From Boswellia sacra (lineage: Eukaryota; Streptophyta; Magnoliopsida; Sapindales; Burseraceae), in NCBI GenBank assembly GCA_013180625.2, contig SNVD02013612.1:18601-82600 (forward strand): 64,000 nucleotides of DNA, in the 5' to 3' direction. A program made the position numbers and the translations under genes. The notes under the pieces were generated by a model. It ran no database searches. It had not been told where the DNA came from and worked only from the letters and a program-made list of their open reading frames with translations. How positions within the stretch are numbered: position 1 is the first letter of the stretch; each line of letters opens with the position of its first letter. Below are positions 17,801 to 41,504 of the stretch, piece after piece.

Positions 17801-20800
17801 AATTTGTATTATGCTTTAAGCACACCAAGGAAAGATACATATATTTGGTATTAATTCAGGTATAAATTTGCTTTGACGATTTTTTTTTTTTTGGACAACT
17901 TAACTTAGATGTATGAGGAAGTTTAGGTCCTATATTTTTGTTTAATTGAAGAGAAAAGAGAATGATAACTTATTCTAATTCACTATAATATCCTCATTGG
18001 TCGCATAGTGGAAGAATCCTCTATGTTTATTTTTAGCTAATGAATTAAAGTAAGGAATTGGCCTCTTTGTTTTCTCAGATGTCTTCAGTTCTAAAGCAAT
18101 CTAAAATGTGGGCTTTTATAGATGCTGTTGGTGCTTCCTTTCTCTTTTTAGGTGTTTCTACTTATTTGTTAAATATATACTTTGTATTACAGTTTAGCTA
18201 CTCAATAAAAATCTCAACTTACAGCTGTGTTGCCGACTGTACTCTTTGTCTAGTTTTCTTCTAACCATGCATGGACATTTGATTATTGTTATTAGACCCG
18301 GGATATTGCACATTCAGTATTTAATATATTATTTCAATTTATCAACCTAGTTGATACTTTATTACTTAAGTGCTTTTTATTTGTCCATCAAATACGTGAA
18401 GGTTAGTGAAGCAAGGAGCTTGGATAGAGATTTAGTGGAGAGTGGCCTTACTTTTGCTGGTTTTGCGGTAATCAACAAACATTTTCATTTCTTTAATTTT
18501 TTTTTTATTACATTCTTCGATATTTTAATTGGTTTTAGTAATGAGTTTTTGGTACGACTTACATTTTCATAATCTGTTTCTGTAAAAGCTGATGATGTAA
18601 ATTTCAGGTATTTAATTGTCCTATTAGAGCAGATTCAGCCACGATTTTGTCTGAGCTAAAGAATTCTTCCCATGACCTGGTAAGTAACATGTTCGTAAAG
18701 TTCTTCTGTGTGATTTTGTATATTAGAAACTGTGAACATTGAATCTGGAGTTTTGATTCAATAGTTTCTATGCAATATTGCCTCCATAAAGACTATTCTT
18801 TTCTAATGATAGGTGATGATCACTGGTGACCAAGCTTTGACAGCTTGTTATGTTGCTAGCCAAGTACATGTTGTTTCAAAGCCAGCACTAATTCTGTGTC
18901 CCTCAAAGACTAGTAGAGGATATGAATGGATATCACCTGATGAGACAGAGGTGATCAAGTACAGGTGAGATTTTAAACTGTCTCTAACTGTGATTTGATT
19001 GTTTTGTACCTGGTTTTAAATCCAGTGAATTTGCTTAGAATTGTTGGACTTGATGTATCCTCTGATATAGATTCTGTGCCTCTACATTTCTCCGTCCTTT
19101 TTTTTTCTGTCAATTAATGTTTTGAAATGAGCTGAAGCAATATTGAGTACTGGTAATAAGCATTTTTTAGCCTTTTATAATTGAGAAGCATTTTCCCACT
19201 CTGTAAACTGAGGAAAGAAAGAATGTTTTGATATGTCAGCGATAAAGAGGTTGAAGCTTTATCAGAGACTCATGATCTCTGTATTGGAGGTGACTGTATT
19301 GAAATGTTGCAGCAGACATCTGCTGTTCTTCGTGTCATTCCTTGTGTGAAGGTAACTGAATTATACTATTCATTTAAACAGTTTAGGTTGATAGCTTCAT
19401 TTGAATAATGCATATGCTAATGATTATGCAGGTTTTTGCAAGAGTTGCTCCTGAGCAAAAAGAACTAATCATGACCACTTTCAAAACAGTGGGAAGGATG
19501 ACATTAATGTGTGGGGATGGTACTAATGATGTTGGAGCTCTGAAGCAGGTAATTTTGATTTGAAAATCAATATTAATGACTGTTTTCATGTCTTTATATC
19601 AAAATCCTGGTAAGTTAAGCTGAAATCATTGTTTCCGGTTCTTTAGGGATCTTCCCCTCCCCTTCCCTCTTCCCGGTGTTCTGAATGCATCTTTGAATTG
19701 ACCCACACTCGGGTTTAGGCATGGGACTAGTAAGCTTGTTTTAAGACAGTGTGGAAGAAATGTTCAGGCAGGATTTCTCTGTGTCTTCTAGGTTCTGCTG
19801 AAACTGATGCAAATTTTTAACGTTGTATAGGGCATATCTTGTGTTGTTTCTGGGCATGATAATTAGAGATTTGTTCTCCTTTTTTCCTTGCCACAGTCAG
19901 AGGTAGCATCGTAGATGATATTTAATACTTTTTTGTTCAGGCCCATGTAGGCGTAGCTTTGTTGAATGCGGTGCCTCCAACTCAAAGTGGAACCTCATCA
20001 TCAGAAACATCTAAAGACGAAAATGTGAAGTCAGTGAAGTTGAAGAAATCAAAGCCTGCATCAGAAGCAGCAGGAAAACCTATCAGTCTGAATGGTGAAG
20101 GCACTTCAAAAGGCAAAGTTCCAGCAAAATCAGATTCCACCTGCCAAACAGCTGCTAGCCGCCATCTAACAGCAGCTGAGAAGCAACGAGAGAAACTGAA
20201 GAAGCTGATGGATGAGATGAATGAGGAGGGTGATGGTCGTAGTGCTCCCATTGTCAAGCTTGGAGATGCCTCAATGGCATCACCATTTACAGCAAAGCAT
20301 GCATCAGTTGCTCCCACAACCGACATAATTCGCCAGGGTCGTAGTACTTTGGTGACCACCCTTCAGATGTTCAAAATCCTTGGCCTTAACTGCCTTGCTA
20401 CAGCTTATGTGTTGAGTGTAATGTATTTGGATGGTGTCAAGCTCGGCGATGTCCAGGCTACAATCAGTGGTGTATTTACAGCTGCCTTTTTCCTATTTAT
20501 TTCACATGCCCGGCCACTTCCCACTCTGTCAGCTGCACGGCCCCACCCCAATATTTTCTGCTTGTATGTCTTCCTTTCTCTCATGGGACAATTTGCAATC
20601 CACTTGCTTTTCCTGATTTCCTCTGTGAAAGAGGCAGAGAAGTACATGCCTGATGAATGCATTGAGCCAGACTCAGATTTCCATCCCAATCTGGTTAATA
20701 CAGTTTCATACATGGTGAGCATGATGCTTCAGGTGGCCACCTTTGCCGTAAACTACATGGGCCGTCCATTCAACCAAAGCATATCTGAAAACAAACCATT

Positions 20801-21056
20801 TTTGTATGCTCTCGTGGCTTCTGTTTGTTTCTTCACTGCCATTACGTCCGATGTATTCAGGGACTTGAATGACTGGTTGAAGTTGGTGCCTTTGCCTCGT
20901 GGATTGAGAGACAAACTTTTGATTTGGGCTTCTCTCATGTTTTTGACCTGCTATACATGGGAGAGGTTCTTGAGGTGGGAATTCCCTGGTAGAGTTCCAG
21001 CTTGGAAGAAACGGCAGCAGGTGGCTGTAGCTAATTTGGAGAAGAAGCGTGTCTGA
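4096..21056 (+). CDS. PDR2: P5A-type P-type ATPase (PDR2/MIA orthologue), 22 coding exons
   Basis: Endoplasmic-reticulum P5A ATPase. In Arabidopsis PDR2/MIA is needed for phosphate-starvation root responses and male gametogenesis; yeast and animal relatives remove misinserted transmembrane helices. Exons: 4096-4344, 4853-4945, 5976-6178, 8270-8342, 8456-8628, 8710-8881, 9424-9528, 9621-9731, 9835-9921, 10010-10192, 10884-10934, 11028-11150, 12195-12274, 15501-15609, 15704-15832, 18402-18467, 18608-18679, 18813-18964, 19240-19351, 19432-19548, 19941-21056. I list 21 intervals; the non-coding leader exon at 3540-3624 is the other. All junctions are GT-AG, keep frame, and give about 1,191 residues (Arabidopsis about 1,180). 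Motifs: TGES at 313-316 (actuator), the P5A signature PPELP at 447-451, the phosphorylation site DKTGT at 490-494, and GDGTND at 809-814. The long last exon holds a Lys/Ser-rich loop and then the C-terminal membrane segments. No stops or frameshifts, so it is probably functional. The acceptor before 18402 is pyrimidine-poor. Confidence 0.95.
4369..4740 (-). repeat. LINE 3'-end fragment in the first coding intron
   Basis: The stretch starts with a 13-T run (the poly-A tail of a minus-strand insertion). It then resembles, with many substitutions, the 3' part of the larger LINE remnant near 12.8-13.1 kb: shared words include ACAGCCAAA, GAAGCCCAAAGAGAAG and ACTCTATC. It is a 5'-truncated, antisense non-LTR retrotransposon insertion in the 4345-4852 intron. 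Confidence 0.55.
5093..5148. repeat. (AT)n(GT)n microsatellite
   Basis: A short AT run passes directly into about 21 GT units, within the intron between 4946 and 5975. The antisense poly-His/Thr reading frame it creates is an artefact. Confidence 0.95.
6437..6453 (+). repeat. 17-base poly-G run followed by CGG triplets
   Basis: Seventeen consecutive G residues are followed by ATGCT and a short (GGC)n run at about 6458-6470, all on the sense strand of an intron. Such a run can form a G-quadruplex in the pre-mRNA. Confidence 0.9.
6472..6988 (+). repeat. Diverged tandem duplication inside an ATPase intron
   Basis: A unit of about 259 bp starting GGTGTTTAGTA is repeated from 6731. Shared anchors in the same order are TTTTGTTTAGGTTTTGA.CAAAGTGTTTCA, GCTTTGTATAG.AATGC and ACAAATTTATT. 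The copies differ by many substitutions and small indels, so the duplication is old. No coding capacity. Confidence 0.8.
8985..9202 (+). repeat. Tandem duplication of about 108 bp in an ATPase intron
   Basis: Both copies run through TTTTGTTTATGTATG, then GGCACAAATATAA.TTGGGC, then ATATATATGTGG.TAATG.TGCC. The second copy begins at about 9094. It lies in the intron 8882-9423. Confidence 0.85.
12771..14400 (-). pseudogene. 5'-truncated LINE (non-LTR) retrotransposon, antisense in a 3.2-kb intron
   Basis: Read on the minus strand from about 14,345 down, the sequence encodes the C-terminal part of a plant L1-type reverse transcriptase (a region like [19 protein letters not shown]), then an open stretch at 14195-13734 with WRF and W...G. 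Next comes a piece of the zf-RVT domain at 13527-13324 (residues [14 protein letters not shown]). Stops and frameshifts separate these parts. The element ends at a T-rich run on the + strand (12771-12798), its poly-A tail. It lies in the intron 12275-15500, opposite to the ATPase, and explains most of that intron's length. Confidence 0.85.
14833..14862. repeat. (TG)n microsatellite
   Basis: About 15 TG units in the same long intron, just upstream of the LINE remnant in the minus direction. Confidence 0.95.
16545..16690 (-). repeat. Possible tRNA-derived SINE
   Basis: On the minus strand a B-box-like GGTTCTAATCCCC (16617-16629) follows, at tRNA-like spacing, an A-box-like stretch GGCTTAGCAGTAAGTAG (about 16655-16671). 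The block is more GC-rich than the surrounding intron (15833-18401). I cannot define the tail or target duplication, so this is tentative. Confidence 0.4.
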
Positions 21057-25385: not shown

Positions 25386-25390
25386 ATATC
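25386..25390. repeat. Left target-site duplication ATATC of the gypsy element
   Basis: ATATC directly precedes the 5' LTR and is matched exactly at 35408-35412. Confidence 0.9.
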
Positions 25391-26792
25391 TGATAGGTGT
25401 CTATTTATGTATCATTTTCATATCAATTCATCTATGTTTCTTTGCTATAATCCTTGGTATTTTTATGTTTTTGTGTGGTTTTGATGTTTGTAGGAGTTTT
25501 GGAGGAACTTGCACAAAAATGGAGTAAAACCCTTCATTTTCACCTCTGCTAGTCAACCATCTTCTCGGATTTAATTGTATTGATATACAATGAACCGGAT
25601 AACATGTTATATACCGTTGGAAAGCTCTCGAAGTCTATTTTCTAGAGAAATTTACGATTCATAAATCCATTCAGTGTACCAAAAGTTATAATCAAAACAG
25701 TGTGAGAAGTATAGAAATGTAATTCTACAAATCACTGTAGCATGTATAATACGGGACACTGTAGCAGGTTACTGTAGCAGAGTATTTAAACACATTTTAG
25801 GGTTTTATTTTGATAACTTGAAGAGGGGAAAACGTGGGAGGAGGCTGCATTTTCTGGATTTCTCTCATCCTTTGGAGTTCTTGAAGGAGAAAGAAGATTT
25901 TGAAAGAGGAGGAACTACAATTTCAAGAAGATTCATCTACAAAGAAGATTTTCAAAGAATTTCCTAAGTTCTTTCTTTCCTTTTCAATTCTGGAATTTCT
26001 CTGTATTGTATTTGTTATTCTGATTGAATATGTGTAACTAAATCTGAAATGGTTGAGGGTGATTTCAAAGCCCTTGATATGGATTTTGTGAGTTGATTGT
26101 GTAAGAAATTGTTATCCAATTCTCTAATTGAAGTTGCTTGTATTTTCCCATATCTAATGCTTATGATTGCTTGCTGATTGTATTTGGAATGACCAACTGA
26201 ATATAATCTGGTTGTTGTCTATTGCTAGACTAGAAATCTTGATCCGTAATTGTCTTGAATTTCTAATCCTTAGTAGCAAAATTGTGATCAGAGATTGCAA
26301 TTGGAGACTACAACCTAAGTTAAATAATCCGAGCTTGTGTGTTTATTGCTTAGATCAACCTATATTTCTTATCGTACTGCATCCATTGAATTAAATTTAG
26401 AGAGCTTGTTCTAGGTTGTTTAATGGATAGAGATTAAATAAAGAGCCTGTTTTATTTAACAACAAAGTAAGGAAAGATTGGGATAACAGAGCTTGTTGTT
26501 ATCTACGGTTGATAATTTCAATGGTGTAATTGGTTGTTATTTTGTGGTAGAGAATGATCCCTTAACCAGATTTCCATCAGCGATTAATTCTCACTTCAAT
26601 TAAGTTTGCATTGTGTTATTCTTTATTTGCATTAATATTTCATCTAGTTAATCAATCAACAAAACCCCCCGTTTATTCTGTTTTTGCTGTAAAATAACAA
26701 ATTCAATTAGAATCAATCCTCGTAGGAACGATATCTTACTCATCACTTTATTACTTGTGCGACTAGTACACTTGCTAGTTTTGAACGCATCA
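25391..26792 (+). repeat. 5' LTR of the cargo-carrying gypsy element
   Basis: 1,402 bp, TG...CA. It contains three CTGTAGCA copies (about 25733-25780) just upstream of a TATA-like TATTTAAA at about 25783. It aligns along its length with 33365-35407 once the hAT insertion there is removed. The 75-codon open stretches near 26,167 and 34,782 recur only because the LTRs are copies. Confidence 0.9.
25733..25790 (+). promoter_or_regulatory. Predicted LTR promoter: triple CTGTAGCA and TATA-like box
   Basis: CACTGTAGCA, CACTGTAGCA and TACTGTAGCA occur within about 45 bp, followed by AGTATTTAAAC. In the 3' LTR the same place reads AGTATATAAAC, a better TATA box, so the 5' copy may be weakened. Transcription from here would produce the genomic RNA that includes the cargo. 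Confidence 0.5.
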
Positions 26793-26798
26793 AGTTTT

Positions 26799-26816
26799 TG
26801 GCGCCGTTGCCGGGGA
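26799..26816 (+). other. Primer-binding site (tRNA-Asp)
   Basis: TGGCGCCGTTGCCGGGGA is complementary to the 3' end of plant tRNA-Asp including CCA. It lies 6 bases after the 5' LTR. Confidence 0.85.
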
Positions 26817-26906
26817 TTGAATTTCTAATCGATTTGTTGTTTTGTTTATATTGTTAATTCCTATTTTTGTTTGTTTTTCTTTTCTGATTATTTGTGTTTA
26901 GGCAAC

Positions 26907-28880
26907 ATGGCAGTAAACTTCCAACAATTCAGTAGCCAATTTGAGCCGCAATTACATTAGAGTGTAAATGATGTAAGCACTCAGAACATTGAACAACAAC
27001 TTTCTGAGCTAACTTCTCTTGTGGAAAACATGGCTGTAGGAGATATGCAGAAATCTTATGAATGTGACGTATATTCTACCATGGAGCATCCAATCGACAT
27101 GTATCCAACTTTACAAGAAGAATATATGGAACAAGCCAATGCCATGGTGGATTTCCAGGACAAACAAGACAATGGTATGATCCTTTCTCTAACACTTACA
27201 ATGCTGGATGGGAAGATCACCATAATTTCAATTACTGGAATCATCAACCAATCACTCCAAATGTGATACCAAATCGGCCAAAAAGTTTCAATCAACCTAG
27301 AGTGCAGCAACCATTTCAAATGCAACCACCACCAATGCCACAACCAGCACCACAACCAGCTCCAGAAAACTCAGGTATGTCACTCCAAGATATTGTTAAT
27401 GCACTTGCCACTAACACAATGCAATTTCAGCAGGAAACTGGGGCAAGTATCCAAAACCTGGCAAATCAAATGGGACAATTGGCTACTAGTATGAGCAAAT
27501 TCGAGGGCCAAGGGTCAGAAAAATTATCTTCTCAAACGGTGATCAATCCAAGAGAGAATGCTTGTGTGATAACTTTGCAAAATGGAGAGCAATTAGATGT
27601 CCTGCCAAAGAAATCACAAACTGATGAAGAAGATGATACCACTTCCACCATGAACAAGACATCATCCTCTAAGGTAAGTCTTAAAACTGCTATTCCTTCT
27701 TATGTTACTCCTCCACCTTTTCCTAGCAGATTGGCAAAATTGAAGAAGGAGGATCAAGAACAAGAAATCCTGGAAACTTCTCACAAAATTGAGGTAAATA
27801 TACCACTTTTGGATTCTATCGAGCAAGTACCTCATTATACAAAACGTCTCAAGGAGTTATGCACCACCAAGAGAAATTTAAAAGGGAATGAGAAAGTAAG
27901 TATGGGGGAAAATGTTTCAATTGTACTACAAAGAAAAATTCCTCCGAAATGCAATGATCCAGGTACGGTCACCATTCCATGCACCATTGGTAAAACCAAG
28001 TTTGAAAGAGCTATGTTAGATTTAGGAGTATCTATTAATGTCATGCCATTTATTTATGCTTCTTCAAATCTTGGACCTTTTGCAAAAAATGGTATTACCA
28101 TTTAGTTTGCTGATCATTTTAATGCATATCCCAAAAGAGTTGTGGAAGATGTGCTTGTGCAGGTGAATCAATTGGTTTTTTCAGCAGACTTCTATGTCCT
28201 TAAAATAGAGAATGAGACATCTCCTAATCCAACACCGATTCTTTTAGGGAGACCATTCTCGAAAACTGCTAGAATCAAGATTGATGTTCATGATGGCACT
28301 CTCACCATAGAGTTTGATGGCAAGGTTATCCGTTTCAATATTTTTGAGGCAATGAGGTACCCTAGTAACTTACATTCTGTTTTTGCAGTTGACGTTATAG
28401 ATTCTTTGGCACAATAATGTTTTGAGTTAACTCGCAAGAATGGATTAGATGTAGCTATTAGTGAGCACATAGGGACAGAAATTCTAAGGAATCAAGAATT
28501 TTTATACAAGTGTCCAAACAAATGGAGGAAGCTGTGGCAAGCTTAGATGAGATCATAGCTATAACCACAAACAGGTATGATGTTTTGTACATTGAATTGC
28601 CTTTATCTAATGAGAAACTTCTTCCTTCTGTGATGAAAGCCAATACCTTGGAGCTTAAGCCACTTCCAGATTATTTGAAGCATGTGTTCTTGGGTGACAA
28701 AGATCCTTTGCCAATGACAATAGAAATGGGCCTTGCACCACTAAAAGAAGAGAAACGCGTCCGAGTACTTAGAGATCACAAATAGCTATTGGGTGGATGA
28801 TTGCTGACATCCAAGGTCCAGCCATATGCATGGACCGTATCTTGTTAGAAGAAGGATCCAAGCCCATTAGTGAAGCACAG
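26907..28880 (+). pseudogene. Degenerate gag-protease of the gypsy element, truncated at the start of reverse transcriptase
   Basis: An ATG at 26907 begins a frame with an early stop at about 26958. The same frame then holds a gag zinc-knuckle remnant (near 27,060-27,110) in which two of the three expected Cys are Tyr. A frameshift near 27,180 leads into a Pro/Gln-rich gag C-terminus and the aspartic protease (28,010-28,060). There the active-site region reads DLGVS instead of the usual D-(S/T/L)-G-A. A TAG at about 28,103 replaces an expected Gln codon; the protease continues downstream through ILLGRPF and IDVHDGTL until another stop near 28,416. The frame is recognisable again up to the first reverse-transcriptase residues (about 28,800-28,910). 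No active product is expected. Confidence 0.85.
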
Positions 28881-29003
28881 CGGAGATTGGACCCTCCCAT
28901 GATGAAACCAACATCGGACTGAGGACGTTAAACCAAGCGCTTATTGGGAGGCAACCCAATGTTTTTGAAAAATAAATAAAAGAAAAGAAAAAAATAAAAT
29001 AAG
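28881..29003 (+). other. Deletion junction and conserved post-pol block
   Basis: Recognisable reverse-transcriptase sequence stops after about 28,910 and is followed at once by AAGCGCTTATTGGGAGGCAA (28936-28955). In Athila-type elements this block normally comes after pol, kilobases downstream. The missing piece is the bulk of reverse transcriptase, RNase H and integrase. Confidence 0.65.
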
Positions 29004-29245
29004 GTAATAATGATCGATTTTTGTGTGTCGAGGAGATTCCTTTTGTAGGCCATCAAATTGATCAGGTTTTATCTCTCTTTGCCATCTGTCTTATTTGTTT
29101 TTTATATTTTTTTACTTGTTTTTTACTTTTGTTTGCTATTGTGTTGTTATCTCTTTTATGTGTCTTTAGTTTCGTTTCTGCTCTTTTCTTTTCCTTCCTT
29201 TTGTTAATTTGATTATTCTGTGCTTTGAGCTCATTTGTGCAACAG
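29004..29245 (+). other. Candidate intron upstream of the first cargo gene
   Basis: AAG|GTAATA at 29004 and a T-rich tract ending GTGCAACAG at 29245 bracket 242 bp of U-rich, intron-like sequence. Splicing here would shorten the leader in front of the ATG at 29365. Env-like genes of plant gypsy elements are often reached by splicing. This is a sequence-only prediction. Confidence 0.4.
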
Positions 29246-29364
29246 CTTGAGGAAACATCCAAACGGGAGCTGAAGTCATTGCTTGAAGGTTTGAAACGTG
29301 CATATTTTGGAGAAAAACAAAATCAATCGCATTATCGGTAATAGCTCTCCTTTTCTCCTCTTCA

Positions 29365-29844
29365 ATGGATGCCGATATCTTTCTGTCGAACATTCGTAAA
29401 TATTTCCCTTCACTTCCTCAAAATGCTGTGTCCAAAATTTATAAAGTACGGATGAATAGACTTTGGGCGTTGATGCTCCTAAATGTGCCTGCTGATATCC
29501 GATGGCTTATCGAAGCCAAGGTGAGATTGTCCGGTGAGCCGGACATTAATCTCGCAAAATACATGACTGGTCTAGGAAAGAGCTACTACGCCAAGAGGCG
29601 AAGAGCGAAAAGGTTACAAGTATGTTATAAATGTGCTAGATGGAATTGTAACCAGACTTGTCGTTCATTAGGTTTTGTATCCAGGAATAGAGAAGATAAA
29701 CTTTCATTTATTAAGAATGGTTTGAGTAATGAGTCGCTGGATAATGTTTTGTTAACTCTCGAGTCACATTCTTGTGGACTTGTTCAGCGTGAATTGCTTA
29801 ATCTTGGACACAATTTCGTGATGAATTGCAGTGTTATAGTCTAG
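29365..29844 (+). CDS. Cargo ORF 1: basic Cys4 protein resembling plant-virus nucleic-acid-binding proteins
   Basis: 159 residues, uninterrupted, in a good start context. A helical N-terminal half leads to a basic patch (Lys72-Arg83, including KRRRAKR), then C87-C90-C95-C99 in a CX2CX4CX3C pattern, then a charged stretch containing KLSFIKNG (112-119). A G-K/R-S-x-x-A-K-R-R-R-A block followed at once by a Cys cluster and then a conserved Lys/Phe/Gly stretch is the layout of the small 3'-proximal nucleic-acid-binding proteins of Betaflexiviridae (carla-, viti-, tricho-, allexiviruses). Several of those suppress RNA silencing. I see the layout; the relationship is from recognition, not a search, and the function is inferred. 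It is not a known gag, pol or env part. The ATG follows a short remnant (29,246-29,340) that resembles the protease-RT linker. Alternatives: a host zinc-finger fragment or an element-specific protein. Confidence 0.6.
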   Translation: MDADIFLSNIRKYFPSLPQNAVSKIYKVRMNRLWALMLLNVPADIRWLIEAKVRLSGEPDINLAKYMTGLGKSYYAKRRRAKRLQVCYKCARWNCNQTCRSLGFVSRNREDKLSFIKNGLSNESLDNVLLTLESHSCGLVQRELLNLGHNFVMNCSVIV

Positions 29845-30146
29845 GGAATCTGACTAAAAACGATCCTGTTTGCCAGTTAATAAGAAAACTGGATGGGAAG
29901 CAAATCCCCGACTCATAGAAGGCGTTTCAGCCGTTACTGGACGTAAAACCAGAGGAAGATGTGAGCCACAATCACACTACTTGTATATTTGAATGTGTGT
30001 TGTTGTTGTCGAATTTTATTTCTTTCTTGTTTCGTTTGATCTGATTATCAATGTTGTTTTTGTGTTGTTGTTGTTTGTTGATTTTGTTTGTTTTAATTTC
30101 AAGTTTTCTTTTTGACAAACCATATGACTACCCCATGACATAAGCA
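29845..30146 (+). other. Spacer after cargo ORF 1
   Basis: Another frame stays open from about 29,812 to 29,918, so ORF 1 may once have been longer and lost its C-terminus by a frameshift. The remainder (29,990-30,120) is T/G-rich non-coding sequence. Confidence 0.3.
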
Positions 30147-30450
30147 CACGTGGGAGACAAGTGTGGAGGTTTTGTCAACCTCCGCCGAAAGTATATCTTT
30201 ACTTTTCATGCTTCACGTGGGAGACAATGTGGAGGTTTTGTCAACCTCCGTCGAAAGTATATCTTTACTTTTCATGCTTCACATGAGACAAGTGTGGCGG
30301 TTTTGTCAAACCCCACCGAAAGTATATCTCCATTTTTCATGTTTCACATGGGAGACAAGTGTGTAGGTTTTGTCAAACCTCGCCGAAAGCATATCTAATT
30401 TTTTCAAATCTTGGGGTGATAAATCTTCATCGAGTAACCCCCACCGAAAT
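30147..30450 (+). repeat. Tandem array of hairpin-forming ~65-bp repeats before the LOG gene
   Basis: Four units begin near 30147, 30214, 30280 and 30346. Each has the order CAC(G/A)TG...GAGACAA, GTGTGG, a hairpin around loop TTGTC, then CCGAAAG(T/C)ATATCT. Units 1 and 2 have a perfect 7-bp stem (GGAGGTT/AACCTCC, 30165-30183 and 30231-30249). Units 3 and 4 change stem bases but keep pairing around TGTC. A fifth, longer-loop hairpin (GGGGT ... AACCCCC, 30413-30442) ends in the same CACCGAAA. Units 1 and 2 contain the palindrome CACGTG. The spurious open frames across the array are a by-product. Confidence 0.8.
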
Positions 30451-30602
30451 TATGTGCCCATGTGTCAAATTTGAGAGTTTTACGTGTGTATATATCCATT
30501 CTCCATATTTTCAAATGTCATTATTATAACCTGTCTTACACTTGAAAAGCATATTACCTAACGTGCATCATTGTCTTACACAAGGTTAGAGCACTTGTAG
30601 AA

Positions 30603-31217
30603 ATGGAGAAAACACCAATTCGGCGATTCCAAAATATATGCGTATTTTGTGGATCGCAATTTGATAAAAATGGAGAGTTTACAACAGCAGCTCTTGATCT
30701 TGGTAGGACATTAGCTGCGAGGGGTATTCATTTGATTTATGGAGGGGGTAGTCTTGGGTTAATGGGGTGTGTGTCGACAGCTGCATCCTTAGGAGGAAGC
30801 AAAGTTCTCGGCATTATCCCTAAACCATTAGCTGTACGAGATATCGTAGGCAACACCATGGGGGAAGAGTTACAGGTTTCTAGTATGCATGAGCGTATTG
30901 CACATATGGTCATTAAATCTGATGCATTTATAGCTTTGCCCGGTGGTTATGGTACATTAGAGGAGATATTTCAAATCACCTCTTGGGCACAGCTAAACAT
31001 CCATCGGAAACCCATTGGTTTGTTAAATGTCAATAATTTTTTTGATGGTTTGTTGTCTTTTCTTGATCAAGCAGTAGAAAAAACTTCATCTCACAGTCTG
31101 GTTACAGCTGCAGGGGAGTTAATTGACAAACTACAAGAATTCGTCTATTCGCCTGATCCAACAATGGCTCGGATAGATTGGTTTGGAGAAGGCAATAAAA
31201 GGCGTAACTGGATTTAA
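30603..31217 (+). CDS. LOG: Cargo ORF 2: LOG-type cytokinin riboside 5'-monophosphate phosphoribohydrolase, intronless
   Basis: 204 residues in a single exon, start AGAAATGG. LOG enzymes hydrolyse cytokinin riboside monophosphates to active free-base cytokinin plus ribose 5-phosphate. The Rossmann-like lysine-decarboxylase/LOG fold is recognisable throughout: ICVFCGS at 12-18, YGGGSLGLMG at 46-55, IPK at 72-74, SMHERIAHM at 94-102 with the conserved Arg98, and PGGYGTLEE at 113-121. Length fits plant LOGs (about 210-220) with a diverged C-terminus. Host LOG genes have several introns, so this is probably a processed copy acquired through RNA. It diverges from typical LOGs at positions such as RIAHM (usually RKAEM) but keeps the catalytic set. 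Transcription would come from the LTR; translation this far downstream needs splicing or an internal promoter. Confidence 0.85.
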   Translation: MEKTPIRRFQNICVFCGSQFDKNGEFTTAALDLGRTLAARGIHLIYGGGSLGLMGCVSTAASLGGSKVLGIIPKPLAVRDIVGNTMGEELQVSSMHERIAHMVIKSDAFIALPGGYGTLEEIFQITSWAQLNIHRKPIGLLNVNNFFDGLLSFLDQAVEKTSSHSLVTAAGELIDKLQEFVYSPDPTMARIDWFGEGNKRRNWI

Positions 31218-32519
31218 CCTCCATCTGTAATCTCTATTTGCTGGTTTGCTTCGTTTTTGTTTGCTTTCTTTTTAGTGTGTTTATTTGAGATTTTTCATGT
31301 CATTTCTTTTGAGTTTTTTTCAGGTTATTTCTTTCGCCCCAGGTAATATTTTCTAATCTCGGTTTTAGAGTGGTGGCTTAAAAAGTTCAAGTTCTCTTGA
31401 AACGCATTCTGGATCTCTTCAATCCATAATGGCTGAATAAGGAGGCTAACTTCTAAACTTTTTAGACCCATTCTAACTAATTGTTTTTGTTTGCTGACTT
31501 GTTGGACTTTGTTATTTTATGAGTAAGTTTAGTTTTGTGTAATTTAGAGTTGTTATGTGTTTTTGTCTTTATCAGTTTCGATTAAAAAAAAAAATTGTGG
31601 AAAAACCTGAGAATGGCAGAATATGGGGTTTCCTTAACCCTTGAAACGCATTCTTCCTTAATAAATCTGTAGTTTGTTTATTTCATGTTGTTTGAAGTGT
31701 CTTGTTTCTTGTTTTGTTCTTTCATAATAAAGGTATATAGGCTGGAAACCTTAAGTCTGCGGGCTACTGGTCCTAAGGATTGTTGAAATATACAATCTTG
31801 ACTCAGGTGTAACAACGCCACGTACCTCTTTTCTTGCATTTTGTGGGTCGATGATAAGATAATGATTGAATTAAGAATAACTCTTGGAAAATGATAAATG
31901 ATGCATGGATCTGTGTGCTTGAAATGTTTATTGTTTTCGCTTTGCTTTTGATTCCTTGCACAACATTGAGCACTGAGCTATTATCACTGAGTTATTTGTT
32001 CACTTAGAGAAAGTTTATGTAATTTAAGTGTTTCTTCAGATTTCAATGAATTCTAGAACTTGTTTGATGGTCACTCGAGGCGAAATCCTAGACTGTGCAA
32101 CATTAGGGAAATGATATAGGCCATCTTTAGACCGTTTGAGCCTTAATAGCCAACCTTTATTAAAATTGATCCCTAGTTACCCCTTTGAGCCTCTGTAAGC
32201 CTTTTGTTTTTTTCTTGTTAACTCACTAAAAGATTTCCTAACCTTAAATGAATTTTTTTTCGAACAGTTTATCCATTCCCTATAAGCATGTAGATCATTC
32301 ACGATTACATTTTGAGCTATGTTTTGGTTTTGGGAAGTTAGAGGAGGTTGGGTTGTGTCATGAGCAATGCAAGTAAGTTTTATTGTGTTTGTAAAAAAAG
32401 AAAAAGAAAAAGAAAAAGAAAAAAAGAAAAAAAGAAAAAAGCCAATCTGTACTTATTGTCCACATATTTACACATTGGGGACAATGGGTTGTTTAAGTGT
32501 GGGGGAGGGGAAGTGTAAT

Positions 32520-32550
<31 letters not shown>

Positions 32551-33350
32551 AAAAAGAACAAAAGAAGAAGAATAAGAGATCTATACCCTTAAGTGTTCTT
32601 AAAAAAAATGAAACAACAAAGTGTGGGGGTGTAGTTTTCTTTTATTTTCTAAAAAAAAAAGAAAAATAGAAAAAAAAGAACAAAAGAGAACAAAAGAAGA
32701 AGAATAAGAGATCTATACCCTTAAGTGTTCTTAAAAAAAATGAAACAACAAAGTGTGGGGGTGTAGTTTTCTTTTGTTTTCTAAAAAAAAAAAGATTTAG
32801 TGTTCTAAATAAGTTTGAGGGAGTAACCTGGTGAATTGAAATGAAGTTGTGTTATAGGGTTGAGCTCTACATAGTCTTGAATGATTTATGTGTTTGTGGG
32901 TGATTTGAGCCAAATTATTATCCTTTATCATACCTTCACCCAAGCCAAACGTTACAAGCTTAATAAAGCCCTACTTGATCTTTGGTGTTGTGCATGTCTA
33001 CATTAGTGGAGAGTGACTTGAAAAGCAGTCCTATGGAGTTCATTTATACACACATCTTCAATATTAAATATGATTCATTTTTATGCATAAACTCATCCGG
33101 TTACAAGTGATTAGGTGAGAATGGCTCTACACACACACACTTGAGGAATTGAAGTGAAGCGAAACTAATCTTTGTAATGAGATTCTTGATCAAGTGCATT
33201 ATTTTGAAGTTTTCCTTGGGTTATAATTAAGTACAATCTTTGAGGCCTATTTGCAAGTTAAAACATGTGTGTTTTAATTTTTTCTTTGAATCTTTTTCGA
33301 TTTAGTTTTGTTTCATATCGTCGTAGTTGCTCGAGGACTAGCAAAGTTTA
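31218..33350 (+). other. Non-coding 3' region of the gypsy element
   Basis: About 2.1 kb with no gene. It contains A-rich tracts (32,393-32,440; 32,518-32,565; 32,650-32,695) and a 132-bp direct duplication (starting at 32,572 and 32,704, both containing GAGATCTATACCCTTAAGTG). A secondary polypurine-like motif TTTAAGTGTGGGGGAGGGG is at about 32,490. These are usual for Athila-type tails. Confidence 0.7.
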
Positions 33351-33364
33351 AGTGTGGGAGAATT
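33351..33364 (+). other. Polypurine tract
   Basis: AGTGTGGGAGAATT lies directly before the TG of the 3' LTR, as expected for plus-strand priming. Confidence 0.75.
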
Positions 33365-35407
33365 TGATAGGTGCCTATTTATGTATTATTTTCATATCAA
33401 TTCATCTATATTTCTTTGCTATAATCCTTGGTATTTTTATGTTTTTGTGTGGTTTTGATGTTTGTAGGAGTTTTAGAGAAACTTGCACCAAAGTGAAGTA
33501 AAACCCTTCATTTTCACCTCTGCTAGTCAATAGGGATGGAACCGGGGCGGGGCGGGTACGGGGCAGGGGATATCCATCCCCGCCCCGGTGAGTTAGTTTT
33601 TGCCCCGCCCCGCCCCATTGCCCCTGACCGGGGCGGGGCCAAAAAAATTTCACTGACCCCATACCCGCCCCGCCCCGCCTATTTACAATTTTTTTCATTT
33701 TTTTCTTATAAACTTCCATTAAATTTAAATATACTTATGTTTATGCCTAATAAACAACAATCCAACAAATAAACAATACCAACACATCAATAAAATCACC
33801 TAATTAACTCAATAAGTGCATAACACTCACAAAATAAAAATAAAAAAATAAAAAATAAATAACTCAATGGTTTTATTTATAAAGTTTGTCAAATTATCTG
33901 GAAACCCACATATATTAAAAGTTAACAAAATATCCCCTTTTAATTTTCCGAAGTCCCTATATTTAAATTTTTTACATTTTCACCCTTTTATTGTACGGGG
34001 CGGGGCGGGTCCAACGGGTCTGGATGACAGACCCGACTCCGGACCCGCCCCGGACGGGTCTTGAACTTTACAGCCCCATACCCGCCCCAATAACACTCCG
34101 GGGCGGGTCCTGCCCCGCCCCATTTGGCCGGGTCCGACCGGGGCTCCGGACCCAACGGGCCAAATGCCCAAGCCTACTAGTCAACCATCTTCTTGGATTT
34201 AATTGTATTGATATACAATGAACCGGATAACATGTTATATATCGTTGGAAAGCTCTCGAAGTCTATTTTCTAGAGAAATTTATGGTTCATAAATTCATTC
34301 AGTGTACCGAAAGTTATAATCAAAACAGTGTGAGAAGTGTAGAAATGTAATTCCACAAATCACTGTAGCATGTATAATACGGGACACTGTAGCAGATTAC
34401 TGTAGCAGAGTATATAAACACATTTTAGGATTTTATTTGAATAACTTGAAGAGGGGGAAACGACATGGAGGCTACAGCTCTGGAATTCTCTCATCGTTTG
34501 GAGTTCTTGAAGGAGAAAGAAAGCTTGGAAAGAGGAATAACTACAAATCTAAGGAGATTTGCAAAGGATTTTCTAAGTTTCTTCCTTTCCCTTTCATTTT
34601 CTGGAATGTTTTTGTATTGTATTGTATTGACTACGTTTTTGAGCATGTGTAACTGAATCTGAATTGGTTGAGGGTGATTTCAAAGCCCTTGATATGGTTC
34701 TTGTGAGTTGATTGTGCAAGAAGTTGTTATCCAATTCTCTAATTGAAGTTGCTTGTATTTTCCCATATCTAATACTTATGATTGCTTGCTGATTGTATTT
34801 GGAATGGCCAACTGAATATAATCTGGTTGTTGTCTATGGCTAGAGTAGAAATCTTGATCCGTAATTGTCTTGAATTTCTAATCCTTAGTAGCAAAATTGT
34901 GATCAGAGATTGCAATTGGGGAATACAACCTAAGTTAAATAATCCGAGCTTGTGTGTTTATTGCTTAGATCAACCTATCTTTCTTATCATAATGCATCCA
35001 TTGAATTAAACTCAGAGAGCTTGTTATAGGTTGTTTAATGGATAGAGATTAAATAAAGAGCCTGTTTTATTTAACAACAAAGTAAGGAAAGATTGGGATA
35101 ACAGAGCTTGTTGTTATCTACGGTTGATAATTTCAATGGTATAATTGGTTGTTATCTTGTGGCAGAGAATGATCCCTTAACCAGATTTCCATCAGCGATT
35201 AATTCTCACTTAAATTAAGTTTGCATTATGTTATTCTTTATTTGCATTAATATTTCATCTAGTTAATCAATCAACAAAACCCCCCGTTTATTCTGTTTTT
35301 GCCGTAAAATAACAAATTCAATTAGAATCAATCCTCGTGGGAACGATATCTTACTCATCACTTTATTACTTGTGCGACTAGTAAACTTGCTAGTTTCGAA
35401 CGCATCA
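33365..35407 (+). repeat. 3' LTR of the gypsy element, interrupted by a hAT insertion
   Basis: TGATAGGTGCC to GCATCA. The extra length relative to the 5' LTR is the 646-bp insertion at 33531-34176 plus its 8-bp duplication. TATA box TATATAAA at 34411-34418. Confidence 0.9.
33531..34176. mobile_element. Non-autonomous hAT element in the 3' LTR
   Basis: It begins TAGGGATGG and ends CCAAGCCTA, with 8-bp duplications CTAGTCAA at 33523-33530 and 34177-34184. The empty site is visible at the same place in the 5' LTR. Both ends are filled with GGGGCGGG/CCCGCCCC repeats and the middle is AT-rich. There is no transposase. Confidence 0.85.
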
Positions 35408-35412
35408 ATATC

Positions 35413-36780: not shown

Positions 36781-37003
36781 TGCCAGAATCTCAGATAATC
36801 AATCAACATTAAACTTAACATTTATTCCCACTGATTTTTTCCTTTCTTTATAATTGATGACTCAGTTTTTTATTCTTTCATTTTTTTATTATTATTGTTA
36901 CTTCATTTTCCTTTATTGTTTTCATCTTGCTTGTATATATGTATTCCATGTACACAATATTGAACATAGAGTAGTGAAATTTATTCATTCACCATTTTTC
37001 ACA
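36781..37003 (+). repeat. 5' LTR of the copia element
   Basis: 223 bp; the same order of words as 41287-41504, including GCTTGTATATATGTATTCC and TAGTGAAATTTATTCATTCA. Confidence 0.88.
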
Positions 37004-37060
37004 AGGTATCAAAGCCAAGTTCACTGGTTTCTTATTTTTTTGTTCATCCTTCATTCAAAC

Positions 37061-40000
37061 ATGTCCACCAGTTCAGAAATAAAAAAGATTGATTTATTGA
37101 TGTCTTGTCACCATACTTTCTTCATCCATCGGATCATCCGGGGGCTATTCTTCTTTCTAATGTTTTGACATCTGAAGGTAATTTTTCAAGATGGAAACAA
37201 TCCATGAAGGTGGCGTTGAATGCTAAAAAACAAACTTCGCTTCATCGACGGTAGCATTGAGAAACCTTCATAAACTTCTCCATAATTAAAAGTTTGGGAG
37301 CGATGCAATGATATGGTTCTGTCATGGATGCTCAGTGCAATCGAGAAGAATCTTGATAGCAATCTAATATATTGTGATACTCCACGATCTTTGTGGTTGG
37401 AATTGGAGGAGCGATTGTCTCAAAGTAACAATCTGCGTATTTATGAACTCAAGAGGGCCATATGCAACCATCAGCAAGAGCAAAAATCATTGGTGGTATA
37501 TTTTAGTACATTAAAATCATATTGGGATGAGTTACCTGTACTAACCGTTATTTCTTCTTGCACATATGAAACTTCGAATGAATCGCAGGGATTCAGGAAA
37601 TTATATTGAAAAAGTTTTTCAATTTTTAATGGGTCTAAATGACTCATATTCTCAATTACGAAGTCAAATCTTGGCTATGGACCCTTTTCCAAATGTTAGA
37701 AAGGCATATTTAATCATTCACCAAGAAGAACGTCAACGTCTTCTCCAAACTCCATGTTTCCGATCAACTATCCATTGAGTCCGTAGCTTTAGCAGTCAAT
37801 AAAGCCTTATCCGGCAAATCGGTCAAATCAACATAACTTTGGACAAGGAGCACAAGAAACACAAGGAATGGGTAGACCTTATTGTGATCATTGTGAAAAC
37901 ATGGTCATATAAGGCCAAATGCTATAAAATTGTTGGATACCCCTAAAGAGGAAACCTTCAAATCATCAACATGCAGCAGCCCTTGTTAACATCAAGTCAC
38001 CACAACAAGGTGAACTTTCTTCCCATGCTATTCAGAAGAGGCTATCATCATCATCTAGATCTTATATTCATATTTCTGGTCTTATTACTGAACAATTTAA
38101 ATAATTATTGTCTATACTTTCAGCAACAAAGCAATCACTTACTGCAAATTTAGCTAGTAAAAAACTTCCTTCTTACAACTCTATTTCAAATACAAATGAT
38201 AATTCTTGAATCATTGATAACGGAGCATCTGATCATATGACACCAAACATATTCTTTTTTAAAAATTATGTTTTCACATCTCATGCAAAACCTGCTAGAC
38301 TTCCAAATGACTTTACGGTTTCTACCATCAAAAGTGGAATTATTGAGTTGTCTCCATTTTTAAATTTAAATGATGCTCTAATAGTTCCAAATTTTAATTT
38401 CAATCTCTTATCTGTAAGTAAACGACCAAATGATATGAATTGTGCTGCAATTTTTTTCCAACATTCTGTGTTTTTCAGGACCTTTCGTCGAAGAAGCTGA
38501 TTGAAGTGGGTAGGGTTCGAGATGGACTATATCATTATGAGCACATCAACAACCCTTCTCACTTCCTTTCAACAATGAACATTACTAAGGAATCGAGTTC
38601 TAATCTATGGCATCTTCGGCTTGGTCATCTTTCCAAAGAACAAATGCGATGTTTGTCTTTTTTATCTGATGTTTCATCTTTCAACTCAAGTTGTGAAGTA
38701 TGTCAGCTTGCTAAAAATACTTGAAATCCTTTTCAATTAAATAAATTTCGTTTAGAAAGGCCTCTTGAGTTAATTTTTTGTGATATTTGGAGTCCATATC
38801 GCCAACTATATACAGATGCTCATATTGTTTTCTTAGTATAGTTGATGAATATACTCATTGTGCTTGGGTTTATCTCATGTGTCATAACTATGAAACTAAT
38901 CAATTATTACAAAATTTTTACTTCATGATTAAGACTCAACTTCAAATACCTATTAAAAATATTCTTACTGATTAAGGGAGTGAATTTTTGCTTTCTAATC
39001 AAACAAAATCTTTTTTTCGAAAGCATGGAATCTTGCGTCAATGCACTTTTGTTGAAACCCCTCAACAAAATGGGGGAGTTGAACGAAGGCATCGACATCT
39101 TTTAGAAGTTGCTCATGCATTACGACTCCAAGCTAAATTACCATTGTATTTTTGGGGTCATTGTATTTTAACCACAACCTATTTGATAAATTGCATTACT
39201 ACTCCTAATCAAAATGGGAAAATTCTTTACGAAATGCTTTTTAAAACCAAGCCACTGTATAAACATCTTCGTCTTTTTGGATGCCTTTCTTATGCACACA
39301 CCAAAAGTGTTAATCACCATAAGTTCAATCCACATGCCACCAAATGCATATTCTTGGTTATCCTTTCGGTTATCATAGATACAAAGGAAAAAAGACTTTT
39401 ATTTCTTGTTAAGTCACTTTTTTTTTTTAAAATAAATTTCCGTTTGATAAATTACCTCATGATATTTTTGATAAACATATCTTACCTCTTCCTATTGTGA
39501 CTTCTCAAAATGAATTTACTTAGCCCCTTAATACTTCCATCCATGTTGAACCATCTATACCTGTTCAAACACCACCTATTCAATGGTCATAGTGACAATC
39601 GTTCCGTGCTTACTATCTTCAAGATTATATTTGCTCTAATGCTCATCAAAGTCCATTTGGAAACTCTTCCTCACTTCATCAGCCCTCGGTAAGCTCTTAA
39701 TATCCATTATCTAATTATCTCTTCCCTGATAAATTTTCTTGTCATCATGTAGCTTTTCTTTCAGCCATCTCTGATGATGTTGAGCCTAAGACGTATTCAG
39801 AATCCGTCAAGCATGCTAATTGGCATGATGCTATGGCTAGTGAGATTAAAGCATTAGAACAAAATAAAATTAGACTATTCAAGATTTACCTCCTAGTAAG
39901 CCCTATTGGATGCAAATGGGTATTCAAAATAAAAAGAAATGCAGATGGCTTTATTGAGAGTTATAAAGCCCAACTTGTTGCCAAAGGATATACATAAACG

Positions 40001-41275
40001 GAAGGATTAAACTATAGTGAGACATTTGCACCCGTTGCAAAGCTTGTGACTATTAGATGTATATTGGCAATAGTTACCGTCCATGGCTGGTTCTTATTCC
40101 AATTAGATGTTCATAATGCTTTTCTTCATGGAGATTTGCATGAGGAGATTTATATGAGCTTATTGGATTTCATAAACAGGGGGAGACTTCTCAGGTTGGC
40201 CTTTTGAACAAGTCATTATAAGGCCTCAAACAAGCTCCTTGAAATTGGTTTGAAAAATTTGCATCTGCTCTAAAGAAAATTAGGTACATTCAATCACATG
40301 TTGATTCTTGTTTATTTACTAACACTCATCATTCTCATTTTACAATGTTAATTGTTTACGTTGATGATATTATAGTTGTAGGTAAACATTATGACTCCAT
40401 AGTTGCTTTGAAGAATTTTTTGCAGACTTAATTTCATAATAAAGACTTGGGTATGCTCAAATATTTTTTAGGTATTGAAGTGGCAAGTTCACAACAAGGA
40501 ACTTTCTTAAATCAAATGACGCTTTAGACATACTTCAAGATAGTGGGCAATCAGGTGCAATGGAGCAAAACTTGCGACTCTCAAGTGATCAAGGAGAACT
40601 TTGTTCAAATCCAGCTCAATATCAACGTCTTGTAGTCCGACTCATTTACTTGACCATTACCAGGCCATATATTATCTACTCAGTAAACATTTTAAGCCAA
40701 TTCATGTAATCACCAAGACAACCACACTATGATGCTACCATACGTGTTTTGCAATATATTAAATCTTCTCCAAGTGCAAGCATTCTTTTATTCTCTACTA
40801 ACTCTTTAGAACTCTTTGCTTTCTCTGACTCAGATTGGGCAGGCTGCCTATAACTGGTCGATCAACTACGGGCTACTTTATCACGCTTGGCAATAGTCCT
40901 ATTTCCTGGAAGACCAAAAAGTAATCAGTTGTGTGACGTTCATCAGTTGAAGCTGAGTATTGTGCTATGGCGATAGCAACATGCAAACTCATTTAACTTA
41001 AAACATTACTTCGTGATCTTGGTATAGACCATCACATGCCTATGACTTTACATTGTGACAATCAAGCTGCCCTTCATATTGCAACAAATCCAATTTTCCA
41101 TAAACGCACGAAGCATATTGAAGTAGACTTTCATCTTATCCGTGAGAAGTTAACTACATGCATTATTTCATTGACTCGTGTCCCTTCTCGGCAACAATTA
41201 ACTCATATTTTTACCAAGACCCTTGGATGTTCTCCGCCAGTTGGGCGTTACGAATCTTCACTTCCCAACTTGTGG
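37061..41275 (+). pseudogene. Copia gag-pol polyprotein, multiply broken
   Basis: Gag starts at ATG 37061; its UBN2-like part is at 37,313-37,780. A damaged CCHC knuckle lies at about 37,870-37,920 with a stop inside. The protease is at about 38,210-38,430 with DNGAS in place of DSGAS and a stop just before it. The pre-integrase HLRLGHLS region is at 38,611-38,640. The integrase core is at 38,780-39,330, including TPQQNGGVERRHRHLLE. Reverse transcriptase runs from about 39,790 to 40,560 with [11 protein letters not shown] and YVDDI. RNase H is at about 40,830-41,230, ending in KTKHIEVDFHLIREKL-like sequence. Frameshifts and stops occur throughout; no functional product is expected. Confidence 0.88.
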
Positions 41276-41286
41276 GGAAGTAGTGA

Positions 41287-41504
41287 TGCCAAAATCTCAC
41301 ATAATCAATCACCACTAAACTTAACATTTATTCCTTCTGATTTTTTCCTTTCTTTATAATTGATGACTTAGTTTTTGATTCTTTCATTTTTTTTGTTGTT
41401 ACCGTTGCTTCATTTTCCTTTACTATTTTTAGCTTGCTTGTATATATGTATTCCCTGTACACAATACTGAAGTAGTGAAATTTATTCATTCACCAGTTTT
41501 CACA
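41287..41504 (+). repeat. 3' LTR of the copia element
   Basis: 218 bp, preceded by a purine-rich GTGGGGAAGTAGTGA. Confidence 0.88.

What the first reader, a model, noticed from the sequence alone, without database searches (positions are those of the whole stretch)
25391..35407. A retrotransposon carrying a cytokinin-activating enzyme and a virus-like nucleic-acid-binding protein
Between precise LTRs and an ATATC duplication, the space that normally holds pol and an env-like gene instead has two open frames: a basic Cys4 protein (29365-29844) and an intronless LOG enzyme (30603-31217). Seen: the structure and motifs. Known: LOG produces active cytokinin; Betaflexiviridae Cys-rich proteins bind nucleic acid and several suppress silencing. 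Inferred: the element may pair defence against host silencing with local stimulation of cell division, which would increase its transmission. I know of no described retroelement with this pair.
Basis: partly seen in the sequence, partly recalled or inferred. Interest (0 to 1): 0.95.

Follow-up and report, generated by a model that had tools for sequence, protein, structure and literature searches.

The report
Cytokinin-gene retrotransposon with virus-type protein
This is a decayed copy of a plant jumping gene that carries a nucleic-acid-binding gene of a kind known from plant RNA viruses and a gene for a predicted growth-hormone-activating enzyme; relatives of both genes occur in several plants, and the pair is predicted to help the element escape silencing and spread with dividing cells.

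Summary
Window 25391-35407 is an LTR element with an ATATC duplication (LTR divergence 0.071), without most of pol, with a Cys4 basic ORF (29365-29844) and a LOG ORF (30603-31217). The Cys4 ORF matches Pfam Viral_NABP and Carla_C4. It is no one-off: a profile search found 995 relatives, typically 182 aa, named ones in Populus, Citrus, Acer, Xanthoceras and others. One fetched relative (L001) has the NABP directly behind an integrase, with no LOG. Window and L001 NABPs show purifying selection (pN/pS 0.34). NABP and LOG recur together in six fused gene models and probably on three shared contigs.

New here: LOG relatives end in a conserved basic LxLxL tail (86 of 105 proteins; 27 of 34 clusters at 80% identity). 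It resembles an EAR motif and is absent from Arabidopsis LOG3. LOG in such elements was reported before; in my searches the NABP, the pair and the tail were not. This window copy is decayed: both ORFs have altered C-termini.

Function is inferred: a nuclear silencing suppressor or regulator plus cytokinin activation, perhaps with TOPLESS binding. No expression, enzyme or copy-number data could be had; a small co-divergence test was negative.

The parts
25386..25390 (.). 5' target-site duplication ATATC
25391..26792 (+). 5' LTR (TGATAGG...CATCA)
26799..26815 (+). primer-binding-site-like TGGCGCCGTTGCCGGGG (tRNA-Asp by recall)
26907..28414 (+). damaged gag/protease-like stretch with stops; longest ORF 27320-28105
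   Evidence: Athila-like label recalled, no Pfam match
28773..28919 (+). short piece resembling the start of an RT, then pol is missing (label recalled)
29365..29844 (+). NABP-like ORF, 159 aa, basic, Cys4; conserved end of relatives lies in another frame downstream
   Evidence: Viral_NABP 8.6e-10, Carla_C4 1.3e-5
30147..30396 (+). 3.8 tandem copies of a 66-nt unit between the two ORFs, each with a GGAGGTT...AACCTCC-like inverted repeat (best kept in the first two)
30603..31217 (+). LOG-like ORF, 204 aa, no intron; lost the LxLxL tail of its relatives
   Evidence: Lysine_decarbox 6e-34
32109..32191 (+). 3' block shared with L001:3016-3099 (75%)
33352..33364 (+). purine-rich stretch before the 3' LTR
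   Evidence: read by eye
33365..35407 (+). 3' LTR, including a 646-bp insertion at 33531-34176
35408..35412 (.). 3' target-site duplication ATATC

Best explanation
The window holds a decayed, mostly pol-less copy of an LTR retrotransposon, likely of the Athila lineage, that carries a carlavirus-type nucleic-acid-binding gene (NABP) and a LOG gene whose relatives keep a conserved basic LxLxL tail, and the two proteins are predicted to let the element escape host silencing and multiply with dividing cells. Shown: the element structure, the homologies, an integrase-NABP arrangement in one relative (the position of env), recurrence of both proteins in several plants, purifying selection on NABP between two copies, and the conserved tail on the LOG relatives. 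Inferred: NABP enters the nucleus and binds RNA or DNA as its viral relatives do, suppressing silencing or switching host genes. Also inferred: LOG makes active cytokinin, and its tail takes it to the nucleus and to TOPLESS corepressors, weakening repression of the element or of cell-division genes. More meristem division would then place new copies in more of the cells that form gametes. The window copy itself no longer codes for complete versions.
For: Pfam matches to viral NABP families in the window ORF and in 99 (Viral_NABP) and 96 (Carla_C4) of 110 relatives. 995 of 2313 candidates at E<=0.01 in the profile search. Integrase followed by NABP in L001. NABP pN/pS 0.34, bootstrap 0.24-0.44, over 148 codons. 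LxLxL in the last 12 residues of 86 of 105 LOG relatives, 1.2% in shuffles, 27 of 34 clusters, not in AtLOG3. Viral relatives of the NABP are reported as silencing suppressors, and one as a transcription factor causing hyperplasia (PMC12172455, passages).
Against: No expression, enzyme or binding data. L001 shows NABP without LOG, so the two need not act together. Distances of 8 NABP/LOG pairs do not correlate (r 0.01, p 0.40). The LOG motif PGGxGTxxE is exact in 89 of 105 relatives only. 19 of 105 lack the LxLxL tail, among them the two earliest-branching rows of the tree. Most relatives sit on short unnamed contigs, so that they lie in LTR elements is shown only for the window and L001.
Confidence: 0.42

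Rival explanations
1. NABP serves the element's own cycle: a second nucleocapsid, RNA chaperone or nuclear-export factor for genomic RNA. LOG is an accessory of unclear use. No effect on host silencing or growth is needed.
For: NABP without LOG in L001. Basic and Cys-rich like a nucleocapsid (mean net charge +14 in 110 relatives). A retrotransposon protein for nuclear export of genomic RNA is known in C. elegans Cer1 (PMC10309623, title and abstract start in a listing).
Against: Does not explain the LOG or its conserved tail. The nearest family with tested functions, viral CRPs, acts on host silencing and transcription (PMC12172455, passages).
Confidence: 0.27
2. LOG's enzyme activity is secondary: the protein is a scaffold that shows an EAR-like tail to TOPLESS as a decoy, lifting repression of the element.
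For: Tail more uniform than the linker before it (27 of 34 clusters); exact PGGxGTxxE in 89 of 105 only.
Against: 22 columns of the LOG core are invariant in 63 of the 105 relatives that were aligned, and most catalytic-motif columns at least 90%, which suggests a working enzyme.
Confidence: 0.13
3. Passive cargo: gene pieces picked up by the element by chance and now decaying.
For: The window copy has altered C-termini on both ORFs and lacks pol. LOG could be a host gene caught as cDNA.
Against: Full-length relatives at 50-80% identity in several plants, pN/pS 0.34 for NABP, conserved added tail on LOG.
Confidence: 0.12
4. An endogenous RNA-virus fragment into which, or beside which, the element fell.
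For: Pfam matches to viral NABP families. RNA-virus pieces do occur in plant chromosomes (PMC3136472, title and abstract start in a listing).
Against: Lies inside one LTR pair. L001 has it directly behind an integrase. Large family with a conserved C-terminal block in several plants.
Confidence: 0.03

Closest known systems
LOG (YgdH/LOGL) extra ORFs in plant Ty3/gypsy elements (Alvarado-Marchena 2022, PMC9289625, section 12 read; Steinbauerova 2011, recalled, Athila-like)
   Same: LOG domain inside a gypsy-type LTR element, in Citrus and Populus
   Different: The section read does not mention an NABP neighbour, a tail motif or a function test
Cys-rich proteins (NABP/CRP) of carla-, allexi- and mandariviruses (PMC12172455, PMC10335701, passages)
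   Same: Pfam families Viral_NABP and Carla_C4; basic stretch before a Cys motif
   Different: Here encoded by a retroelement, about 182 aa in relatives, with a conserved C-terminal block
Plant LOG enzymes (Arabidopsis LOG3, PDB 2a33)
   Same: 50% identity over 193 residues; PGGxGTxxE
   Different: No intron in the window; relatives end in a basic LxLxL tail that LOG3 lacks
Phalaenopsis gypsy elements with an AlkB-type RNA demethylase ORF (PMC9289625, abstract and passages)
   Same: LTR element with a captured enzyme kept over several rounds of replication
   Different: Other enzyme; there activity was shown in vitro, here none was tested
Pathogen effectors with EAR motifs that bind TOPLESS (HaRxL21, Jsi1; listing only)
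   Same: Short EAR-type motif on a parasite protein
   Different: Here on a LOG enzyme of a retroelement; binding untested
Retand antisense ORFs with TRP28 domain (PMC11963269, passages)
   Same: Extra ORF between pol and 3' LTR, proposed to bind DNA
   Different: Antisense and another domain; here sense orientation

Membership tests
LTR retrotransposon | Paired LTRs and target-site duplication | tested here: met
   TGATAGG...CATCA twice, ATATC on both sides, K2P 0.071
LTR retrotransposon | gag-pol with RT, RNase H and integrase | tested here: not met
   Only a damaged gag/protease-like stretch in the window; L001, a relative, has integrase
Athila lineage | Position in an RT or integrase tree | not tested
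   No RT in the window; no reference set in hand; label rests on recalled gag/protease and primer-site letters
Viral NABP / Carla_C4 family | Profile match above the curated cut-off | tested here: met
   39.4 bits vs 23 and 25.5 bits vs 20.9
Viral NABP / Carla_C4 family | Nucleic-acid binding and silencing suppression | not testable with these tools
   Bench assay needed
LOG cytokinin phosphoribohydrolase | Lysine_decarbox domain and PGGxGTxxE | tested here: met
   6e-34, PGGYGTLEE
LOG cytokinin phosphoribohydrolase | Release of free-base cytokinin | not testable with these tools
   The window copy lacks a short internal stretch
EAR-motif protein | LxLxL motif near the C-terminus in the LOG relatives | tested here: met
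   86 of 105, 27 of 34 clusters; the window LOG itself lacks it
EAR-motif protein | Binding to TOPLESS | not testable with these tools
   Bench assay needed
Endogenous betaflexivirus sequence | Neighbouring viral genes (coat, triple gene block, replicase) | tested here: inconclusive
   None recognised by eye among the ORFs of at least 90 aa in the window or of at least 50 aa in L001; not every ORF was run against Pfam

The most novel reading that the evidence does not exclude
A heritable plant retroelement lineage works like a mild oncogenic retrovirus. It carries a nuclear, TOPLESS-engaging cytokinin enzyme and an RNA-virus-type silencing suppressor or transcription factor, so that it gains copies by stimulating the dividing cells that become the germ line. 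Its NABP gene is part of a pool exchanged between retroelements and flexible RNA viruses, with retroelements possibly the source.
Probability: 0.22. Interest if true: 0.94.

Novelty: new variant of a known kind. Interest (0 to 1): 0.8.

Why it matters
The gene in the env position of plant LTR elements has mostly had no known function. A large protein family, homologous to RNA-virus Cys-rich proteins and found there in at least one element with integrase, would link retroelements and RNA viruses through a shared host-manipulation gene. A cytokinin enzyme with its own EAR-like tail would make the idea of growth-stimulating transposons directly testable. It also suggests that some annotated plant LOG genes (for example Populus LOGL10, P0122) may be element genes, which would affect surveys of the LOG family.

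Tried and rejected
Tried without result: scans of viral contigs with the NABP and LOG profiles found no confirmed relative, so no tree with viral NABPs could be built and the direction of transfer stays open. The window's own genome could not be searched: searches were unanswered. Rfam: no match at gathering score in the element. Mantel test of NABP and LOG distances over 8 pairs: no correlation (r 0.01, p 0.40); some pairs are fragments and two are paired by genus only. The tree (41 rows, bootstrap not settled) holds only two host LOGs, and its other plant LOGs were picked by similarity to the window, so their grouping (99/97) is weak evidence for one capture.

Considered and rejected: an endogenous RNA-virus fragment (integrase-NABP arrangement in L001); a coding artefact (Pfam above cut-offs, many relatives); unique cargo. 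Left open: in-frame splicing inside NABP and from NABP to LOG. It fits ENA proteins P0064/P0065 and the Citrus models, but those may be gene-prediction artefacts.

Literature, ten answered searches: in the listings (15-20 rows each, nine, sixteen) I saw no paper that joins a carlavirus-type NABP with a retrotransposon or a LOG with an EAR motif. Text seen: PMC9289625 (passages and section 12); passages of PMC12172455, PMC7264820, PMC11963269, PMC10335701 and PMC9956375; a term search in PMC6317226 found none of six terms. All others: listing only. Not held: Steinbauerova 2011 by the DOI that I recalled, PMC3634699, PMC6638135.
Full report
Observation. The element is real and its ends are exact: 5' LTR 25391-26792, 3' LTR 33365-35407, ATATC on both sides. 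The LTRs differ at 93 of 1381 sites (K2P 0.071), so the insertion is not recent. The interior starts with a primer-site-like TGGCGCCGTTGCCGGGG and a broken gag/protease-like stretch, and lacks the rest of pol. Downstream are two ORFs on the same strand: 29365-29844 and 30603-31217.

Identity of the two ORFs. The first matches Pfam Viral_NABP (8.6e-10) and Carla_C4 (1.3e-5), both above curated cut-offs; the second matches the LOG domain (6e-34). The closest solved relatives of the second are Arabidopsis At2g37210 (LOG3) and At5g11950 (LOG8; LOG names recalled); identity to LOG3 is 50% over 193 residues.

Recurrence. A single-sequence search with the NABP gave 77 of 90 candidates at E<=0.001, the best 70% identical. 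A profile of 27 sequences (A1) gave 995 of 2313 candidates at E<=0.01, of which 120 were listed. Of 159 listed NABPs (P0001-P0069, P0198-P0287) I examined the 110 of 165-200 aa and dropped 49 shorter or longer ones; P0070-P0077 (fused models and a fragment) were left out beforehand. 69 of 110 are exactly 182 aa and 89 of 110 carry C-x2-C-x4-C-x3-C. 99 of 110 match Viral_NABP and 96 of 110 Carla_C4 at E<=0.01. Basic residues before the cysteines, the four cysteines and a C-terminal block (QF.RKLD.K) are at least 90% conserved. The LOG search scored only the 7999 candidates that share most words; 7856 passed E<=1e-10 and the best 120 were listed. Named plants with an NABP relative: Populus, Citrus, Acer, Xanthoceras, Rhamnella, Orobanche, Diplodiscus; with a close LOG relative: Populus, Xanthoceras, Diplodiscus, Reevesia, Melia, Primulina, and Citrus in the fused models.

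A relative with integrase. The one scan of genome contigs returned L001, 3330 bp filed under a Nomurabacteria MAG. It holds an intact integrase ORF (rve 2.1e-16, Integrase_H2C2 1.1e-12) followed about 200 nt later by an NABP of 182 aa (186 from the first ATG). I take it to be plant contamination (inferred). No LOG follows in the remaining 980 nt, yet a block at L001:3016-3099 matches window 32109-32191 at 75%. So the LOG region is extra in the window's subfamily, or lost in L001's. Between the window and L001 NABPs, 148 codons give pN 0.241 and pS 0.717, ratio 0.34 (bootstrap 0.24-0.44), dN 0.29 and dS 2.3: purifying selection along this lineage, with dS near saturation.

Do NABP and LOG travel together? 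Six gene models, five from Citrus x changshan-huyou and one from Diplodiscus, contain NABP and LOG pieces in one protein, best explained by adjacent ORFs. Three NABP/LOG pairs have the same longest-contig length (8723, 2737 and 2128) against 0.4 expected from offset lengths among contigs of at least 1900 bp; over all 72 x 38 contigs used (shorter and chromosome-size ones dropped) there were 4 against 0.8, the fourth at 1558. Against this, distances among 8 NABP/LOG pairs do not correlate (r 0.01, p 0.40), a small test with partial sequences.

The LOG tail. Of the 120 listed LOG relatives, 105 are 205-232 aa. 86 of 105 have LxLxL in their last 12 residues (shuffled proteins: 1.2%), and none of 105 has LxLxL before its last 20 residues. 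After clustering at 80% identity, 27 of 34 keep the tail: a variable linker after a Trp (Tyr in one), then mostly 3-4 basic residues and LDLTLRL-like letters. AtLOG3 ends in WEMERIGYSSEE instead; the last ten residues of AtLOG8 were not seen, and no other host LOG was at hand. LxLxL is the commoner of two EAR motif forms, the extended LxLxLxL is known, and EAR motifs are most often C-terminal (PMC9956375, passages). That it recruits TOPLESS here is inferred. The window LOG has lost this tail. The exact PGGxGTxxE motif is in 89 of 105 relatives and in the window.

State of this copy. NABP is open through its Cys motif, but its conserved end is in another frame; the LOG lacks a short internal stretch and the tail. 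Full-length relatives exist elsewhere. This copy is a witness of the family, not a working example.

Mechanism. Viral Cys-rich proteins of this family are described as silencing suppressors and pathogenicity determinants, and chrysanthemum virus B p12 as a transcription factor that causes hyperplasia (PMC12172455, passages). LOG enzymes produce active cytokinin (established knowledge). The simplest joint reading is that the element pairs a nuclear nucleic-acid-binding regulator with a growth-stimulating enzyme, the latter perhaps also engaging corepressors. Plants set germ cells aside late (recalled), so more meristem division would carry more new copies. Each functional step is inferred.

What is known. 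LOG (YgdH) in Citrus and Populus LTR elements is published (PMC9289625, section 12 read, citing Steinbauerova 2011, which was not held). That survey of 121 genomes names PMD, G-patch, AIR1, YgdH and others in the section read, not the NABP; its supplement was not seen. My ten answered literature searches listed no paper that I saw to report the NABP, the pair or the tail; most papers of subscription journals are not in that library. I therefore call it a new variant of a known kind.

Noticed in passing
window 33531-34176: 646-bp GC-rich insertion inside the 3' LTR with 8-bp duplication CTAGTCAA and ends TAGG...CCTA, which looks like a hAT-type non-autonomous transposon (label recalled).
   Followed up: partly
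window 29534-29671 and 29534-30600; L001:1962-2099: A GT-AG stretch inside NABP that would remove the basic and Cys part in frame, in both window and L001, as in proteins P0064/P0065; the same donor with an AG just before the LOG ATG would join NABP's start to LOG in frame. Possibly a retrovirus-like splicing scheme, possibly chance.
   Followed up: partly
window 30147-30396: 66-nt tandem repeats with small inverted repeats between NABP and LOG; not seen in the L001 sequence read. Role unknown.
   Followed up: no
window 32520-32792: 132-bp tandem duplication, 97% alike, containing AAAGTGTGGGGGT.
   Followed up: no
window 36781-41471: Two direct repeats about 4.5 kb apart around ORFs that look like copia gag and pol pieces (recalled): probably a second, truncated LTR element close by.
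   Followed up: no
window 8519-8929, 20208-21056 and 55335-55733 (-): Host-gene-like ORFs: P5-type ATPase pieces and a CSC1/OSCA-like piece (labels recalled, untested).
   Followed up: no
P0122, P0140, P0177: Populus proteins named LOGL10 carry the basic LxLxL tail and may be retroelement genes annotated as host LOG genes.
   Followed up: partly
L001 (DAIEQH010000041.1): A contig binned into a Candidatus Nomurabacteria genome is plant retroelement DNA by content, that is, probable contamination of a reference MAG.
   Followed up: partly
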